Shown: piece by piece, positions 4,546-15,001 of the stretch
Layout of the letters: the number at the start of each line of letters is the position of its first letter
Numbering within the stretch: position 1 is the stretch's first letter
Origin: Eubacterium coprostanoligenes
GTDB taxonomy: Bacteria > Bacillota > Clostridia > Oscillospirales > Acutalibacteraceae
Direction of reading: 5' to 3'
DNA length: 42,824 nt
Assembly: GCF_900167205.1 (NCBI RefSeq)
Contig: NZ_FUWW01000016.1
Coordinates: 1-42,824 of the forward strand
The notes under the pieces: model-generated
Told to the model about the DNA's origin: nothing
The model's input: the letters and a program-made list of their open reading frames with translations, nothing else
Databases searched by the model: none
Position numbers and translations under genes: made by a program

Positions 4546-4572
4546 AAATATATGGGAAATGGAGGAATGACG

Positions 4573-5400
4573 ATGGCATTAGCACCTATTAGTATGAGCG
4601 TCAATTTGCAGGAAGAACTCCAAAAGCAGCTCAACATCGACGAAGTGTTCGGCTTTGATGTCAATGGCGTACACATCGGCTTTGATGAAAGCACTGTGGT
4701 TTCTTGGATTATAATTGTCGCTGTGACGATTTTGGCTATATTCCTCACCCGAAACTTAAAGGTTCAGGGCGAAATATCCAAGCGTCAGATGATACTCGAA
4801 ATGTGCTATGAAAAGGCAGAAGCATTTTTCAAAACCATTATGGGTCCAAAGGTAGAAAGGTATATACCATGGCTTATGAGTATGGCTTTGTTTATCGGCG
4901 TGTCCAATATGATTGGACTGTTGGGATTCAAGCCACCTACAAAAAGTATGCAGGTCACTGCGGCTATGGCACTCACTTCTATCGTGCTCGTAGAATATTG
5001 TGCCTTTAAGGATAAGGGTGTCCTCGGCAGGTTCAAGCAATTTACAAAACCTGTGTGGATAGTTACTCCTATCAATATTCTTGAGGTGTTCACCAAACCG
5101 CTTTCGCTTTGTATGCGACTTTTTGGTAACATCATTGCAGCGTTCACCATTATGGAATTAATCAAGGCAGTGCCGTTTATGAAGTTCGGATTTCCGGTTG
5201 TGTTCAGCCTCTACTTCGATTTGTTTGACGGACTCCTGCAAGCGTACATTTTCTGTTTCTTGACAGCTATTTATCTTCAAGAAGCTGTTGAAGAAGAGGA
5301 AGAAGAGCCAAAGGAAGCAAAGAAAATGCGCAAGGCTCAAAAGAAAGCCGAGAAATTGGCAAAAAAACAAGCAAAAAAACAAGCTAAAGCTACGGCTTGA
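4573..5400 (+). CDS. atpB: F-type ATP synthase subunit a
   Basis: Subunit a forms the half-channels of the membrane FO sector and works against the c-ring. The start at 4573 is preceded by GGAGG (4561-4565) with seven bases spacing; upstream in-frame ATGs (4552, 4567) are less well placed. The 275-residue protein has several membrane segments and the conserved channel arginine in LCMRLFGNIIA. The helix SLYFDLFDGLLQAYIFCFLTAIYL is the normal C-terminal hairpin. The protein normally stops shortly after that point, but here a tail of about 37 residues follows, first Glu-rich (VEEEEEEP) then Lys/Ala-rich. No atpI precedes it. Confidence 0.95.
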   Translation: MALAPISMSVNLQEELQKQLNIDEVFGFDVNGVHIGFDESTVVSWIIIVAVTILAIFLTRNLKVQGEISKRQMILEMCYEKAEAFFKTIMGPKVERYIPWLMSMALFIGVSNMIGLLGFKPPTKSMQVTAAMALTSIVLVEYCAFKDKGVLGRFKQFTKPVWIVTPINILEVFTKPLSLCMRLFGNIIAAFTIMELIKAVPFMKFGFPVVFSLYFDLFDGLLQAYIFCFLTAIYLQEAVEEEEEEPKEAKKMRKAQKKAEKLAKKQAKKQAKATA

Positions 5401-5703: not shown

Positions 5704-6186
5704 ATGTTAAAGTTTGATTTTAATTTGCTTTGGACAATAGTCAATCTTATTATTTTCTATCTTTTGATGAGATTTTTCCTTATCAAGCCAATCAAAAAGA
5801 CCCTTCAGGCAAGAAAGGAATTGATTGATAATCAGTTCAAAGAGGCTGAAGATACGGTTAACGCCGCAAACGAAAAAATGGCTGATTATGAGGATAAAAT
5901 CAAAAATGTCAACACCGAAGCAAAGGAAATTATTTCTGATGCAAGGGATAAGGCAAAGGTTGAATATAACAAAATCCTTGACAAAGCAAATAATGATGCC
6001 ACAAGGCTTAAGCAAGACGCTCAAAAGCAAATCGAGTTGGATACGGAAAATGCCCGTCGAGATGTTAAGGAAGAACTTGCAAAGCTTGCTATGGAGGCAG
6101 CACAAAAGGTTGTCGGCGAAAGCGTAAGCGCAAAAACCGATGCAGAAATTTATGACAAATTTTTAAACGAAAGCAGTGAAGATTAA
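5704..6186 (+). CDS. atpF: F-type ATP synthase subunit b
   Basis: The 160-residue subunit b is the peripheral stalk. One N-terminal membrane helix (about 8-28) is followed by a long charged helix (about 40-145) rich in Lys, Glu and Ala, and then a short C-terminal part ([14 protein letters not shown]) expected to contact delta. Its TAA overlaps the ATG of the next frame (TAATG), so translation is probably coupled to the delta-alpha fusion. A ribosome site GAAAGGAAA lies just upstream. Confidence 0.95.
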
Positions 6187-8196
6187 TGATTAAAAATCAA
6201 GATTTATATATCCAAAACCTGCTTTCAAACCAAGTTAGCGTGGGTAGCTTGGAAGATGCGTTGAGATTGTACAACAGCAGCGAGGAACTTCGTGAAACAC
6301 TCAACAATCCAAACTATCCTGCCGAGGAAAAACAGCAGGTAATCAACGATTTGTTTGCTCCGTCCGTAAGAGAATTTTTGAGCGAGCTTGCCGAGAAATG
6401 CCAGTGTGGCGACCTCGAGGAGCTTATTGAGGCATATATCGTTGAAGGTGACAGAAAAAAGAATATCATTCACGCAACAGTAACTTGCATCAACCCTCCT
6501 GACGAAAAGCAACTCAAGGGTATTGAGGATTTTGTTCGTAAGGAAACAAAGAGCGAAAATGTTGTTGTTGACATAAAAAAAGATGCGTCTTTGATTGGCG
6601 GTTTTGTAATTGCGGTTGAGGGCAAGGAGTATGACTTCTCTCTCAAAACAAAGATGCAGACTATCAAAGAGCAAATTCTTCGTACTGCCAAGGAAAGCAC
6701 CGGAAGCAACAAAGAGGTGCTTGAAGTTTTGCGCAAGGATATTAAGTCCTTCAAAGATAATCTTCAGGGCGAAGAAGTCGGTCAGGTAGTCAAGGTTGGC
6801 GATAATATCGCAACAATCGTTGGACTTGGCAATGCAATGTACGGCGAAATCGTTGTGTTTGAGGACGGCACAAAGGGTATGGTTCAAAACATCAACCACG
6901 ACTCAATCGGCTGTATCCTTTTTGGTTCGGATGACGAAATCGAGCAAGGCACAAAGGTTAAGCGTACAAAGAGAAAAGCAGGCGTTCCGGTAGGCGAAAA
7001 TTTTGTCGGCAGAGTTGTAAATGCTCTTGGCGAGCCTATCGACGGCTTGGGAGATATTGAAGCAAGCGATTACCGCTTGGTTGAGCAACCGGCTCCGTCA
7101 ATCGTTGACAGAAAATCGGTTTCAAAGCCAATGGAAACAGGTATTCTTGCTATTGACTCTATGTTCCCGATAGGCAGAGGTCAGCGTGAACTTATCATCG
7201 GTGACCGTCAAACAGGTAAAACATCTATTGCAATCGACACTATCATTAACCAAAAGGGCAAGGACACAATCTGTATTTACAATGCCATCGGTCAGAAAGC
7301 GTCAACTGTTGCAAAACTTGTTAACACACTCAAAAAGAACGGTGCTATGGATTACACAATCGTTGTGTGCTCAACAGCATCGGATGCGGCTTCACTTCAA
7401 TATATTTCTCCGTATTCGGCAACGGCTATGGCTGAATACTTTATGTACAAGGGCAAGGATTGCCTCATCGTGTATGACGATTTGAGCAAGCACGCTGTTG
7501 CTTACCGTGCAATTTCTCTTCTTTTGGGCAGACCGCCTGGACGAGAGGCTTATCCCGGTGATGTATTCTATTTGCACTCAAGACTTCTTGAGCGTTCAAG
7601 CCGTTTGAGTGACGAGCTTGGCGGCGGTTCAATCACTGCCTTGCCTATCATCGAAACCCAGGCAGGCGATGTATCTGCATACATCCCAACAAATGTTATT
7701 TCAATTACAGACGGTCAAATTTATCTTGAAAGTGACCTTTTCTTCTCGGGTCAAAGACCTGCGGTTAATGTCGGTCTTTCCGTATCCCGTGTTGGCGGTG
7801 CGGCTCAAACAAAGGCTATGAAGAAGGCAGCAGGCTCACTTCGTGTTGATTTGGCACAGTTCAGAGAAATGGAAGTGTTCACCCAGTTCTCTTCTGATTT
7901 GGATGATGACACAAAGATGCAACTTAAGTACGGTTCGGGTCTTATGGAACTTCTTAAGCAACCGCTTACTCACCCAATGTCACTTGCACAGCAGGTTATC
8001 ACTCTTGTTGGTGCAATCGGCAAGAAGTTTGTTGATGTGCCAAAGGACAAACTCAAGAGCTATCAGGGCGAAATGCTCGAATATTTTGAAAATCATCACA
8101 GCGACCTTGTTGCTGAAATCGACACTCAAAAGGTGCTTGATGATGATTTGAAGGCTTCAATCCTCGATGTGATTGATGAATTCGGAAAGGCAAATA

Positions 8197-8204
<8 letters not shown>
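6186..8204 (+). CDS. atpHA: ATP synthase delta-alpha fusion protein
   Basis: One uninterrupted frame of 672 residues encodes two subunits that are normally separate. Residues 1 to about 169 are subunit delta, ending in its usual C-terminal element ([20 protein letters not shown]). A short linker (STGSNKE) leads directly into a near-complete subunit alpha from about 178. Alpha shows [13 protein letters not shown], the P-loop GDRQTGKT (339-346) and the SVSRVGG arginine-finger region. In F1, alpha is present three times and delta once, so a strict fusion would upset stoichiometry. An in-frame GTG at 6717 (codon 178) could start a free alpha of 495 residues, the usual size. The start overlaps the atpF stop, and atpG begins eight bases before this gene ends. 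A lost stop codon through sequencing error is the main alternative. Confidence 0.9.
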
Positions 8205-10502
<2,298 letters not shown>

Positions 10503-11032: not shown

Positions 11033-11500
11033 ATGAAAAAATTGTTCAACAAAGAAGTAATAATGTATCTCATTTTTGGAGTGCTCACAACCGTTGTGTC
11101 GTGGGGCACTTATACCGTTTTTGTCAATCTTTGCAAAATGTCGGTGTTTTGGGCAAATCTTGTCAGCTGGGTGTGTGCTGTGACTTTTGCCTACATCACA
11201 AACAAACTTTGGGTGTTTGAATCAAAAAGTTGGGAAATCAAATTTGTCCTTAAAGAAGCTGTGTCGTTTTTTGCATCCCGTGGAGTTACGGGAGTTATTG
11301 AGATTGTCTGCGTTCCGTTGCTTGTAAAAACTTCTTTTGACAATCTGTTTTACAATTTGTTTGAAAAAATGGGCGTAGGTATGAAAATTCTGTTCACTGA
11401 TGGTATTTATTCAAAGGTGGCAGTGTCGTTCGTTATCATAATTCTGAATTATGTTTTCTCAAAATTAATAGTGTTCAAGAATAAAAAGACCAAGGAATGA
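11033..11500 (+). CDS. GtrA-like family membrane protein
   Basis: A 155-residue protein with four hydrophobic segments (about 10-30, 38-58, 75-95 and 125-147). The family pattern is LIFGVLTTVVSWGTYTVF near the start, WVCAVTFAYITNKLWVFES in the second helix region and NYVFSKLIVFKNK at the end. GtrA-like proteins are thought to help move or flip lipid-linked sugars used for surface glycan decoration; the substrate here is unknown. AAGGA (11019-11023) precedes the ATG. It appears to be a single-gene unit with its own promoter and a terminator overlapping its last codons. Confidence 0.85.
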   Translation: MKKLFNKEVIMYLIFGVLTTVVSWGTYTVFVNLCKMSVFWANLVSWVCAVTFAYITNKLWVFESKSWEIKFVLKEAVSFFASRGVTGVIEIVCVPLLVKTSFDNLFYNLFEKMGVGMKILFTDGIYSKVAVSFVIIILNYVFSKLIVFKNKKTKE

Positions 11501-11656: not shown

Positions 11657-13318
11657 ATGACAGATTTTAAGGAATTGGCACAGCTTTTGTTTCCAAATAT
11701 CAAAAAAGCTCCGCAGGATATGGAAGATATGTATCCGCCAAGAGCACTTAAAGAGGGCGCAAGGGTAACTCGTTTTGCTCCAAGTCCAACAGGCTTTTTG
11801 CATTTTGGCAACCTGTTCACCTGTATGGTGTCTTATAAGACAGCAAAAACTACCGACGGTGTGTTCTATGTTCGAGTTGAGGACACTGATCAAAAGCGTA
11901 AAGTTGAGGGTGCTATTGATGTAATGCTCAAGGGACTTTCGGTTTACGGAATCAATGCAGATGAGGGTGTTGTCGGTGACGAAAAAGAAATCGGCGACTA
12001 CGGACCGTATTATCAAAGTGCAAGAGTTGAGATTTATCAAACTTATGCAAAGGCACTTGTTGAGCAGGGACTTGCTTATCCTTGCTTCTGCTCCGCCGAT
12101 GAACTTGACGAAATCCGCACCGCACAGGAAAACGAAAGCATCAAGGGCTATTGGGGCAAATGGGCAAAATGCCGTGACCTTTCGTTTGAGCAAATCAAGG
12201 CTAATATTGATTCGGGTATGAGCTGGACACTTCGCCTTAAGTCACCGGGCGACCTCGAAAAGAAGTGCTATTTTGACGATATGATTAAGGGCAAAATTGA
12301 AATGCCGGAGAATGTTCAGGATGTTGTTCTTCTCAAATCGGACGGAATTCCGACCTATCACTTTGCACATGCAGTTGACGACCATCTTATGAGAACCACT
12401 CATGTTGTCAGAGGTGACGAATGGATTTCATCTGTTCCGATTCATCTTCAGCTGTTCAAGGTGCTTGGCTTCAAGCCACCAAAGTATGCTCATGTTTCTC
12501 CTATTATGAAGGAAGAAAACGGAGGCAAGCGCAAACTTTCAAAGCGTAAAGACCCTGAAGCAGCCGTTACTTATTATGCAGAAGAGGGCTATCCTCAGGA
12601 AAGCGTAAACGAATATATGATGACTCTTGCCAACTCAAACTTTGAGGATTGGCGCAGAATGAACAAAACAGAGCCTATCGAAAAATTCCCGTTCAACCTC
12701 AAAAAAATGAGCGTGTCGGGTGCACTTTTTGACATTGTAAAACTCACCGATGTGTCAAAGAATGTTATTTCTGTTATGCCTGCCGAAAAAGTGTTTGAGC
12801 TTGCTTATGCTTGGTCAAAGGAATATCAGCCACAGCTTGCAGAGCTTTTTGCACAGGATGAGGCAAAGGCAACCGCAATTCTCAACATCGACCGTGAGGG
12901 CAAAAAGCCTCGTAAGGATATTGCAAAGTGGAGCGATGTGCTCGATTATGTAAGCTATATGTATGACGAAACTTTTGTTCCGAATTATGAGCTTAACGGC
13001 AACGCAACTCCGTCACTCGCAGTCAAGGTTATTGAAGAATACCTCAAGGTTGTAAATCTTGATGATGACAAAGACGCTTGGTTTGGCAGAATGAAAGAGG
13101 TTTGTCCTCTTGTCGGATGCACACCGAATGTCAAGGAATACAAGGCAGAGCCTGAAAAATTTGAAGGTCATGTCGGCGATGTGTCAACAATTATTCGTGT
13201 GGCACTCACAGGCAGAACAAACACACCGGACCTTTTTGCCATCACCGCACTTTTGGGCGAGGACACAGTAAAGGCAAGATTGAATTCGGCACTAAATCAC
13301 TACAAGGAGGAAATGTAA
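11657..13318 (+). CDS. gltX: Glutamyl-tRNA synthetase
   Basis: Charges tRNA-Glu with glutamate. The protein is 553 residues, somewhat long, with about 38 residues before the catalytic core. The class I signature is RFAPSPTGFLHFGN (HFGN in place of HIGH) near 39-52, and the KMSKS-type loop is RKLSKRKDP near 300. ENVQDVVLLKSDGIPTYHFAHAVDDHLM and HVVRGDEW are GluRS-typical. The C-terminal anticodon-binding region is recognisable only loosely. glnS starts on the very next base after its stop, so the two are co-translated. With a separate GlnRS present, this enzyme is presumably specific for tRNA-Glu, which is inference. Confidence 0.93.
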   Translation: MTDFKELAQLLFPNIKKAPQDMEDMYPPRALKEGARVTRFAPSPTGFLHFGNLFTCMVSYKTAKTTDGVFYVRVEDTDQKRKVEGAIDVMLKGLSVYGINADEGVVGDEKEIGDYGPYYQSARVEIYQTYAKALVEQGLAYPCFCSADELDEIRTAQENESIKGYWGKWAKCRDLSFEQIKANIDSGMSWTLRLKSPGDLEKKCYFDDMIKGKIEMPENVQDVVLLKSDGIPTYHFAHAVDDHLMRTTHVVRGDEWISSVPIHLQLFKVLGFKPPKYAHVSPIMKEENGGKRKLSKRKDPEAAVTYYAEEGYPQESVNEYMMTLANSNFEDWRRMNKTEPIEKFPFNLKKMSVSGALFDIVKLTDVSKNVISVMPAEKVFELAYAWSKEYQPQLAELFAQDEAKATAILNIDREGKKPRKDIAKWSDVLDYVSYMYDETFVPNYELNGNATPSLAVKVIEEYLKVVNLDDDKDAWFGRMKEVCPLVGCTPNVKEYKAEPEKFEGHVGDVSTIIRVALTGRTNTPDLFAITALLGEDTVKARLNSALNHYKEEM

Positions 13319-15001
13319 ATGGCAATTGATGAAATCAAAGACGAGGAAACCGTAACCCAAAACTTCATCCACGATTTTATTGATGAAGATTTAAAAGAGG
13401 GAGTGTATTCCCGTGTTCAAACAAGATTCCCTCCTGAACCGAACGGCTATCTCCACATCGGACACGCAAAGGCTATTTGCATTAACTTCGGTGTAAAGAA
13501 CAAGTACAACGGTGTTTGCAATCTCCGTATGGACGACACAAACCCGATTAAAGAGGACACCGAATATGTAGAGTCAATCAAAGAGGACATCAAGTGGCTT
13601 GGATTTGATTGGGATAATATCTACTTTGCGTCTGATTATTTTGATTATATTTACGAATGTGCGGTTAAGCTCATCAAAAAAGGTCTTGCTTATGTTGACG
13701 AATCATCGGCAGACGAAATCAGAGAGATGAGAGGCACTCTTACCGAGCCGGGTAAGAACAGCCCGTACCGTGACAGACCTATTGAAGAAAGCCTTGATTT
13801 GTTCCAAAGAATGACAGACGGCGAATTTGAGGCAGGTTCAAAGGTTCTTCGTGCAAAAATTGATATGGCGTCACCGAATATGAATATGCGTGACCCGATT
13901 ATCTATCGTATTATGTATGCACATCACCACAGAACAGGCGACAAGTGGTGCGTTTATCCTATGTATGACTTTGCTCATCCTCTTTCGGACGCTTGCGAAA
14001 AAGTAACACACTCACTTTGCTCATTGGAGTTCGAAAATCACAGACCGCTTTATGATTGGGTTTGCGACAACTGCGTTGAGGGTGAAAAGCCAAGACAGAT
14101 TGAATTTGCAAGAATGAACCTCAACTACACTCTTACATCAAAGAGAAAGTGCCTGAAACTTGTTCAGGACAAAATTGTTGACGGTTGGGACGACCCAAGA
14201 ATGGCAACAATCAGCGGTATGCGTCGTCGTGGCTATCCTGCCGATGCAATCCGTGATTTTTGCGAAAAAATCGGTGTTTCAAAGGCTTACAGCGTAATTG
14301 ATTTTGCGATGCTCGAAAGCTGTGTTCGTGACAGCCTCAACAGAAATGCAAAGAGAGCAATGGCTGTTGTTGACCCGCTCAAACTCATCATCGACAATTA
14401 TCCTGAAGATAAGGTTGAAGAACTTGAGGTTGAATATCATCCTGACCACGAGGAATTCGGCAAGCGCACTATTCCTTTCGGCAAAGAACTTTGGATTGAG
14501 AAAAACGACTTTATGGTTGAGCCGATCAGCAAGTACCGCCGTTTGTTCGTTGGCAACGAGGTTAGACTTTACAAGGCTTATTGCGTAACTTGCACAGGAT
14601 ATGATTTGGACGAAAACGGTGAGGTTATCGCTGTTCACGCAACATACGACCCTGAAACATTTGGCGGTGACACTCCTGACGGAAGAAAGGTCAGAGGCAC
14701 AATTCATTGGGTGTGTGCAAACGATTGCAACACAGCAGAGGTTAGACTTTACGACCGTTTGTTCAATGTTGAAAATCCAAGTGACGAGGAGGGCGTTGGC
14801 TCATTTGAGGACAATCTCAATCCTGATTCACTTGAAGTTAAAACCGCTTATGTTGAAAAGGCACTTGCAGGAACTCATCCGGGCGACAGATTCCAATTTA
14901 TGCGCATAGGCTACTTCTGCACCGATAAGGACAGCAAGCCGGATGCACTTGTGTTTAACAGAACAGTACAGCTCAGAGACAGCTTTAATAAAAAGAAGTA
15001 A
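13319..15001 (+). CDS. glnS: Glutaminyl-tRNA synthetase
   Basis: Charges tRNA-Gln directly with glutamine. The 560-residue protein shows the GlnRS form of the class I signature (RFPPEPNGYLHIGHAKAI, near 37-54), the acceptor-recognition segment (YAHHHRTGDKWCVYPMYDFAHPLSD) and the LTSKRK loop. The C-terminal beta-barrel anticodon domain is complete (ending NRTVQLRDSFNKKK). Many Firmicutes lack GlnRS and make Gln-tRNA by transamidation, and glnS in that phylum is generally attributed to lateral gain. AAGGAGG (13304-13310) inside gltX serves its start. Confidence 0.96.
   Translation: MAIDEIKDEETVTQNFIHDFIDEDLKEGVYSRVQTRFPPEPNGYLHIGHAKAICINFGVKNKYNGVCNLRMDDTNPIKEDTEYVESIKEDIKWLGFDWDNIYFASDYFDYIYECAVKLIKKGLAYVDESSADEIREMRGTLTEPGKNSPYRDRPIEESLDLFQRMTDGEFEAGSKVLRAKIDMASPNMNMRDPIIYRIMYAHHHRTGDKWCVYPMYDFAHPLSDACEKVTHSLCSLEFENHRPLYDWVCDNCVEGEKPRQIEFARMNLNYTLTSKRKCLKLVQDKIVDGWDDPRMATISGMRRRGYPADAIRDFCEKIGVSKAYSVIDFAMLESCVRDSLNRNAKRAMAVVDPLKLIIDNYPEDKVEELEVEYHPDHEEFGKRTIPFGKELWIEKNDFMVEPISKYRRLFVGNEVRLYKAYCVTCTGYDLDENGEVIAVHATYDPETFGGDTPDGRKVRGTIHWVCANDCNTAEVRLYDRLFNVENPSDEEGVGSFEDNLNPDSLEVKTAYVEKALAGTHPGDRFQFMRIGYFCTDKDSKPDALVFNRTVQLRDSFNKKK

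What the first reader, a model, noticed from the sequence alone, without database searches (positions are those of the whole stretch)
6186..8204. ATP synthase delta and alpha subunits fused in one frame
No stop separates a nearly complete delta (residues 1 to about 169) from a nearly complete alpha (from about 178); the joint is a short Ser/Thr/Gly/Asn linker. Delta sits on the N-termini of alpha in the assembled enzyme, so the joint is sterically reasonable. Alpha is present three times per complex and delta once, so a strict fusion would need a changed peripheral stalk, processing, or a second source of alpha. Mycobacterial b-delta fusion shows that stalk fusions exist, but I do not know of delta-alpha as a described architecture.
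Basis: partly seen in the sequence, partly recalled or inferred. Interest (0 to 1): 0.8.

Follow-up and report, generated by a model that had tools for sequence, protein, structure and literature searches.

The report
Stalk-to-motor fusion in ATP synthase
In a group of gut bacteria the protein that anchors the ATP synthase's outer stalk is built into the motor protein itself, so each enzyme probably carries three stalk anchors instead of one; this matters because such an enzyme might make ATP from a weaker ion gradient.

Summary
Window 6186-8204 is one 672-aa frame with ATP synthase delta (both domains) and a complete alpha, the only alpha found in a 99%-complete genome. It is no artefact: 23 of 36 sampled same-genus genomes carry the full-length fusion, as do isolates of other groups. 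Five same-genus genomes have only delta's C-terminal domain fused to alpha and no other delta match; this N-domain loss is not one clade and includes the window's sister lineage. Sixteen other loci of the order have a tripartite b'-deltaC-alpha protein. A conserved internal start is not supported: separate alpha genes have start plus Shine-Dalgarno in 37 of 38, full fusions in 13 of 57 with 11.2 expected by chance. So alpha is probably made only as the fusion, giving three deltas per F1. The deltaC-alpha form is already in print: Ueno et al. 2025 engineered it (up to three peripheral stalks, H+/ATP 5.8) and named natural cases. Ten paper searches gave nothing on the full-length delta-alpha or b'-delta-alpha forms.

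The parts
4552..5400 (+). atpB, F0 subunit a (exact start codon unsure); ends in a charged Glu- then Lys/Ala-rich tail
   Evidence: Pfam PF00119 146.6 bits; only a gene found in the genome
5440..5667 (+). atpE, F0 subunit c
   Evidence: Pfam PF00137 64.6 bits
5704..6186 (+). atpF, F0 subunit b; separate, single copy
   Evidence: Pfam PF00430 95.7 bits; only b gene found in the genome
6186..8204 (+). fused atpH-atpA, 672 aa
6186..6461 (+). delta N-terminal domain (residues 1-92); absent in the sister lineage L011/L019
   Evidence: domain split used; omega 0.13 against L032
6462..6701 (+). delta C-terminal, b-binding domain (about residues 93-172)
   Evidence: aligned with the engineered delta C-domain of 9jc1_I
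6690..6719 (+). joint, residues 169-178 [10 protein letters not shown]
   Evidence: sequence; variable between relatives
6714..6731 (+). only candidate internal start: TTG 6729 with GAGGTG 9 nt upstream; GTG 6717 has no Shine-Dalgarno match. Not conserved in the genus
6717..8204 (+). alpha subunit, complete, with N-terminal helix and the nucleotide-binding sequence GDRQTGKT
8197..9093 (+). atpG, gamma
   Evidence: Pfam PF00231 309.6 bits
9120..10502 (+). atpD, beta
   Evidence: TIGR01039 823.4 bits
10515..10928 (+). atpC, epsilon
   Evidence: Pfam PF02823 and PF00401

Best explanation
The gene makes one protein in which every alpha subunit carries its own delta. Each alpha3beta3 head then has three delta C-terminal domains, each a docking site for a b2 stalk, held to alpha by the chain itself and no longer only by delta's N-terminal domain capping the three alphas. 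Shown: one frame, one alpha gene, conservation, no conserved internal start, N-domain loss in several places of the tree. Inferred: the product is not cut, three deltas are incorporated, and the covalent link bears the load between stalk and head. In the window's species the N-domain is kept and under purifying selection; I infer that one N-domain occupies the axial site while the other two are displaced, and that more than one stalk could be added. How many stalks are present is not known.
For: One alpha and one OSCP match in the genome. Same fusion in 23 of 36 sampled genus genomes and in isolates of other groups. Start plus Shine-Dalgarno in the same 27-codon window: 37 of 38 separate genes; 13 of 57 full fusions (11.2 expected from random windows in the same genes), 29 of 105 deltaC-alpha (26.9), 4 of 16 b'-deltaC-alpha (4.2). 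N-domain missing in five genus genomes with no other OSCP match; held as one clade these are rejected, p-AU 2.3e-8. If the product were cut, a lone delta C-domain would have no known hold on F1. The joint differs by one residue in length from the engineered 9jc1_I chain, and cryo-EM of that engineered enzyme shows the C-domain bound to b2 in the canonical way.
Against: No protein evidence: processing at the variable, polar joint cannot be excluded. The window has a candidate TTG start with GAGGTG upstream, and full fusions show a small excess of start codons with Shine-Dalgarno matches of 5 nt or more (8 of 57, 2.8 expected). The N-domain stays conserved (omega 0.05-0.19 in the eight closest genus pairs), which three equivalent copies on one axis do not simply explain. 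Two genus genomes have delta and alpha separate, nested among full fusions, so fusion is not obligatory.
Confidence: 0.7

Rival explanations
1. Dual products from one gene: an internal start at the joint makes free alpha (two copies per enzyme), and read from the top it makes one delta-alpha, keeping the classical 1:3 ratio.
For: Window TTG 6729 has GAGGTG 9 nt upstream; GTG 6717 lies near where separate genes start. Full fusions as a set have 8 of 57 joints with a start and a Shine-Dalgarno match of at least 5 nt, 2.8 expected. It would solve the stoichiometry.
Against: Not conserved: the nearest relative L032 has the codons but not the site, and 18 of 28 genus full fusions have no ATG/GTG/TTG in the joint. 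Starts of any kind are rarer than chance in full-fusion joints (28 of 57, 41.5 expected), while separate genes have 37 of 38 with a site. Non-canonical starts were not tested.
Confidence: 0.12
2. The fusion is cut by a protease at the joint and works as ordinary separate subunits.
For: Joint of about 10 polar residues with no conserved sequence; nothing in DNA excludes cleavage.
Against: No conserved cleavage motif seen; would not explain why the N-domain could be lost more than once in fused genes; the engineered deltaC-alpha ran on SDS-PAGE as a fusion and made ATP.
Confidence: 0.13
3. Three deltas but strictly one stalk in the full-length form: the axial N-domain limits the number to one, as Ueno et al. 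argue for the wild type, and the other two deltas are passive. (A sub-case of the best explanation, not exclusive of it.)
For: Ueno et al. attribute the stalk number to the N-domain; the N-domain is under purifying selection in full fusions.
Against: In the fusion the C-domain no longer needs the N-domain to sit on alpha; does not explain the N-domain losses nearby.
Confidence: 0.4
4. Sequencing or assembly artefact: a missed stop or frameshift.
For: The window comes from a 35-contig assembly.
Against: Same joint in many unrelated assemblies and isolates; omega well below 1 on both sides of the joint.
Confidence: 0.01

Closest known systems
Engineered Bacillus PS3 deltaDeltaN-alpha FoF1 (Ueno et al. 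2025, PMC12229609; PDB chain 9jc1_I, matched to it by molecule name, length and domain order)
   Same: Delta C-domain joined to alpha's N-terminus by a short linker of nearly the same length; alpha exists only as the fusion.
   Different: Man-made; delta residues 2-104 and the epsilon C-terminal domain removed. The window keeps the delta N-domain.
Natural deltaDeltaN-alpha of Acidaminococcus fermentans, and UniProt G4Q3K6 and A0A1I2C5T3 (named in the same paper's discussion)
   Same: Natural delta-alpha gene fusion in an F-ATPase operon.
   Different: N-domain missing there; here full length. Five same-genus genomes of the window (G002, G012, G016, G021, G034) have the shortened form.
Mycobacterium/Gordonia b-delta fusion (PMC5709465, passages)
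   Same: Peripheral-stalk gene fusion involving delta.
   Different: Delta is joined to b, not alpha. The b'-deltaC-alpha genes of relatives combine both kinds of joint.
N-ATPase (alternate F1Fo)
   Same: F-type ATPase with an altered delta arrangement.
   Different: N-ATPases lack delta and have a longer b (PMC5706428, passage). The window's subunits score below all N-ATPase (alt F1F0) cut-offs listed.

Membership tests
F-type ATP synthase alpha (TIGR00962) | score over curated cut-off | tested here: met
   766.7 against 484.45 bits, residues 175-668
ATP synthase delta/OSCP (PF00213) | score over gathering cut-off, both domains present | tested here: met
   93.9 against 22.3 bits; profile 26-171 of 172, the first 25 positions not matched
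deltaDeltaN-alpha multi-stalk FoF1 (Ueno et al.) | delta C-domain fused to alpha N-terminus | tested here: met
   one frame; aligned across the joint with 9jc1_I
deltaDeltaN-alpha multi-stalk FoF1 (Ueno et al.) | delta N-domain absent | tested here: not met
   N-domain present in the window; absent in five same-genus genomes
[quoted passage not shown]
   needs purified enzyme; one a and one b gene in the genome
N-ATPase | alpha score over the TIGR03324 cut-off; delta absent | tested here: not met
   605 against 750.5 bits; delta present
b-delta fusion (mycobacterial type) | b and delta in one protein | tested here: not met
   b is a separate ORF 5704-6186

The most novel reading that the evidence does not exclude
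These bacteria naturally build F-type ATP synthases with two or three peripheral stalks and as many a subunits, and so make ATP at low ion-motive force. The window's full-length delta-alpha is the evolutionary step before the N-domain is shed, and the b'-deltaC-alpha lineage has made three stalks obligatory by giving every alpha its own membrane-anchored b'.
Probability: 0.45. Interest if true: 0.88.

Novelty: new variant of a known kind. Interest (0 to 1): 0.7.

Why it matters
Ueno et al. [quoted passage not shown] One genus that holds separate genes, full fusions and N-domain-less fusions, with N-domain loss in more than one place, is a natural series in which to test whether delta's N-domain really limits stalk number and whether evolution has already raised the ion-to-ATP ratio. 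All 12 genus genomes that I searched (of 37, own included) have an RnfD/RnfE/NqrB-family protein (PF03116), part of a likely ion pump, so ATP synthesis from a weak gradient is a plausible benefit; this is inference.

Tried and rejected
Internal start codon giving free alpha: my first idea; counted across relatives and rejected as a conserved feature, though the window's own TTG cannot be excluded. The first count scanned a region cut on its upstream side in many genes and gave 9 of 57; the recount with one fixed window for all classes, and with random windows as control, gave 13 of 57, and also showed a small excess of longer Shine-Dalgarno matches in full fusions. Because of that recount I set the dual-product rival to 0.12 (0.10 before) and the best explanation to 0.70 (0.72 before). 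Decaying N-domain: rejected; omega is low and like that of separate deltas. A delta N-domain encoded elsewhere in the five N-domain-less genus genomes: no match found (G016 is 73% and G002 88% complete, so weaker there). Three genomes reached through named loci (G060, G062, G066) have a second, full-length OSCP match; for G060 and G066 I fetched that region and its alpha is separate (L130, L131); for G062 I did not. Recombination as the origin of the two separate-gene genus members: their delta is not nearest to the genus fusions, a hint only.

The N-domain profile was trained partly on the window's own N-domain, so its scores are not independent. Counts include duplicate loci. Literature: 10 searches of open-access full text only, no preprints, no subscription papers, no supplementary files; 'not described' means not found in these. 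The division of roles between the two delta domains rests partly on recall, partly.

Full report
What is there. The window holds an F-type ATP synthase operon, a-c-b-[delta-alpha]-gamma-beta-epsilon. The frame 6186-8204 encodes 672 residues with no stop. Pfam places OSCP (delta) at residues 22-163 and the three alpha domains between 197 and 666; NCBIfam gives atpA from residue 175 at 766.7 bits against a cut-off of 484.45. Alpha keeps its own N-terminal helix, so little was lost at the joint, which is about ten polar residues (169-178). The genome (1.82 Mb, 35 contigs, 99.01% complete) shows no second alpha (the only other match is beta), no other OSCP, one a gene and one b gene. No V-type rotary ATPase turned up in the alpha search of the own genome, whereas further ATPase matches that look like V-type subunits turned up in several relatives (that label is inferred from position and frame length).

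Not an artefact. One search covered 60 relatives, 36 of them same-genus; I classified the joint from the DNA (G021 from L125). Of the 36, 23 have the full-length fusion, 5 have only the delta C-domain fused to alpha (G002, G012, G016, G021, G034), 2 have separate genes (G026, G029), and 6 could not be classified because the genes are split between contigs or were not found whole (G003, G010, G011, G015, G018, G019). Among the 80 named loci the full fusion occurs in isolates such as Pseudobutyrivibrio xylanivorans DSM 14809 (L049), Agathobacter ruminis JK623 (L040), Oribacterium parvum ACB1 (L053) and the complete genome of Lachnospiraceae bacterium GAM79 (L041); the short form occurs in Butyrivibrio hungatei DSM 14810 (L068), Shuttleworthella satelles DSM 14600 (L084), Absicoccus porci (L056) and Faecalibacterium gallinarum (L098); separate genes also occur, for example in L038, L039 and L099.

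A series of architectures. With profiles for the two delta domains, b and alpha, 228 frames (duplicates included; L002 is an edge fragment) fall into 59 full delta-alpha, 113 deltaC-alpha, 16 b'-deltaC-alpha and 40 separate. These were mostly fetched because they match the fusion, so the proportions are not frequencies in nature. In the order survey, 71 listed places in 70 of 394 genomes match stop-free across delta and alpha (my count of a listing that was cut); of the 71, 43 are deltaC-alpha, 16 b'-deltaC-alpha, 8 full, 1 tandem deltaC-deltaC-alpha (L162, G136), and 3 were not classified (G385 and G070 not fetched, G166 cut short). By my count, 36 of 392 class genomes and 10 of 398 phylum genomes have a listed stop-free match at E <= 1e-54; five of those ten lie outside the class, four of them in one family code (f121). 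The three samples overlap. Most genomes in each sample therefore show no such match: the fusion is common in the genus, patchy in the order and class, rare beyond.

The b'-deltaC-alpha frames (736-784 residues, stop to stop) begin with a hydrophobic b-type helix and stalk, then the delta C-domain, then alpha; all 16 operons also have a separate b gene just upstream (two read in full). They form one clade (16 rows, local support 100). If unprocessed, each of the three alphas brings its own membrane helix, which is hard to reconcile with one stalk. Of the 183 fused loci with enough upstream sequence (duplicates included), 182 have exactly one separate b gene.

Is free alpha made? In one fixed window of 27 codons around the alpha start, 38 of 38 separate alpha genes have ATG/GTG/TTG and 37 of 38 one with a Shine-Dalgarno match of 4 nt or more; 32 of 38 have a match of 5 or more. 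For 178 unique fusions the same test gives 13 of 57 full (11.2 expected from random windows in the same genes), 29 of 105 deltaC-alpha (26.9) and 4 of 16 b'-deltaC-alpha (4.2). Start codons of any kind are found in 28 of 57 (41.5 expected), 76 of 105 (80.8) and 12 of 16 (11.4). Against my reading, matches of 5 nt or more occur in 8 of 57 full fusions with 2.8 expected (7 of 105 with 7.7 and 2 of 16 with 1.6 in the other classes). In the genus 18 of 28 full fusions have no ATG/GTG/TTG from the end of the delta C-domain to 22 residues into alpha. The window has GTG 6717 without, and TTG 6729 with, an upstream GAGGTG; its nearest relative L032 has both codons but not the site. A conserved internal start is therefore not supported, though single species, the window's among them, could use one. 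The joint varies in sequence, so no protease site is visible, but cleavage cannot be ruled out from DNA.

History. On a 40-row alpha-core tree (IQ-TREE, fused part left out) the window and L032 (full) are sister to L011 and L019 (deltaC-alpha), support 100/99 for the four. The five genus deltaC rows held as one clade are rejected (p-AU 2.3e-8). The deltaC label, which in this tree also covers two same-family rows, needs 4 changes, at least 3 forced by starred branches. Several losses of the N-domain are the simplest reading; exchange of genes between lineages is not excluded. The two separate-gene members nest beside a full fusion (100/97), which means fission, recombination or a separate fusion history; their delta resembles separate deltas of other genera about as much as the genus fusions. 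The N-domain is not decaying: in the eight closest genus pairs omega is 0.05-0.19 for the N-domain and 0.03-0.06 for alpha, against 0.12-0.39 for the N-domains of separate deltas where it could be computed (7 of 8 pairs) (window-L032 0.13; synonymous sites often near saturation). So the N-domain works in full fusions and is then lost as a unit. The 21 separate deltas that I used as profile seeds are of full length; I did not survey separate deltas for N-domain loss more widely.

How it most likely works. Ueno et al. 2025 (PMC12229609; outline, passages, whole discussion section) removed the delta N-domain and fused the C-domain to alpha in Bacillus PS3 FoF1. They report one to three b2 stalks with a subunits by cryo-EM, a and b raised 2.2- and 1.8-fold by SDS-PAGE, and H+/ATP of 5.8 against 3.0, and argue that the axial N-domain limits the wild type to one stalk. 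PDB chain 9jc1_I (580 aa, named 'ATP synthase delta subunit, ATP synthase subunit alpha') is the only one of the 46 chains listed that covers both the delta C-domain and alpha; its aligned stretch differs from the window's by one residue in length. Hence the joint is sterically possible and would place the C-domain where b2 binds. I infer that in the window's enzyme every alpha carries a delta and that the peptide bond takes over the N-domain's anchoring role, which would explain why the N-domain could be dropped more than once in fused genes. What the three N-domains do while present, and whether one or more stalks attach, is open: I give 0.45 to a natural multi-stalk enzyme in this group and about 0.4 to three deltas with a single stalk in the window's species.

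What is known and what is new. The natural deltaC-alpha fusion is in print, briefly, for Acidaminococcus fermentans and two UniProt entries. A 2017 survey of transcription units (PMC5709465, passages) reports b-delta fusions in Gordonia and some Mycobacterium, and Clostridia units listed without delta; a delta hidden in alpha could be a cause, which I did not test. Hackmann and Firkins 2015 (PMC4478896, passages) report all F-ATPase subunits in 62 butyrivibrio genomes and note no fusion in the passages seen. A 2018 review of peripheral stalks has no occurrence of 'fusion' or 'fused' (PMC6131620, term search). In ten searches of an open-access library I saw nothing in the listings on a full-length delta-alpha fusion, a b'-delta-alpha protein, or repeated N-domain loss. 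These are the new parts, within the limits of that library.

Noticed in passing
L112 (G056), L114 (G055), L175-L187 and L189: One protein of b'-type membrane helix and stalk + delta C-domain + alpha, beside a separate b gene; 16 loci, one clade.
   Followed up: partly
L162 (G136): Tandem deltaC-deltaC-alpha: the delta C-domain together with an alpha-N-terminal-like helix seems duplicated ahead of alpha.
   Followed up: no
G060, G062, G066 (genomes of L065, L098, L040): These genomes hold a second, full-length OSCP match besides the fused one, so some species seem to keep both a canonical and a fused F-ATPase.
   Followed up: partly
window 5280-5397: Subunit a ends in a long Glu-rich then Lys/Ala-rich tail. 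Charged tails, mostly shorter, also end subunit a in L011, L086, L088 and L098, but not in L056, L065 or L084.
   Followed up: no
L029 (G029) and L031 (G026): Same-genus genomes with separate delta and alpha: the two genes lie in one frame, delta's stop codon directly followed by alpha's ATG.
   Followed up: partly
window 11657-15001: Two adjacent ORFs that look like glutamyl- and glutaminyl-tRNA synthetases (recognised by eye, no family search run).
   Followed up: no
window 11033-11500: GtrA/DPMS-type membrane protein directly downstream of atpC.
   Followed up: no
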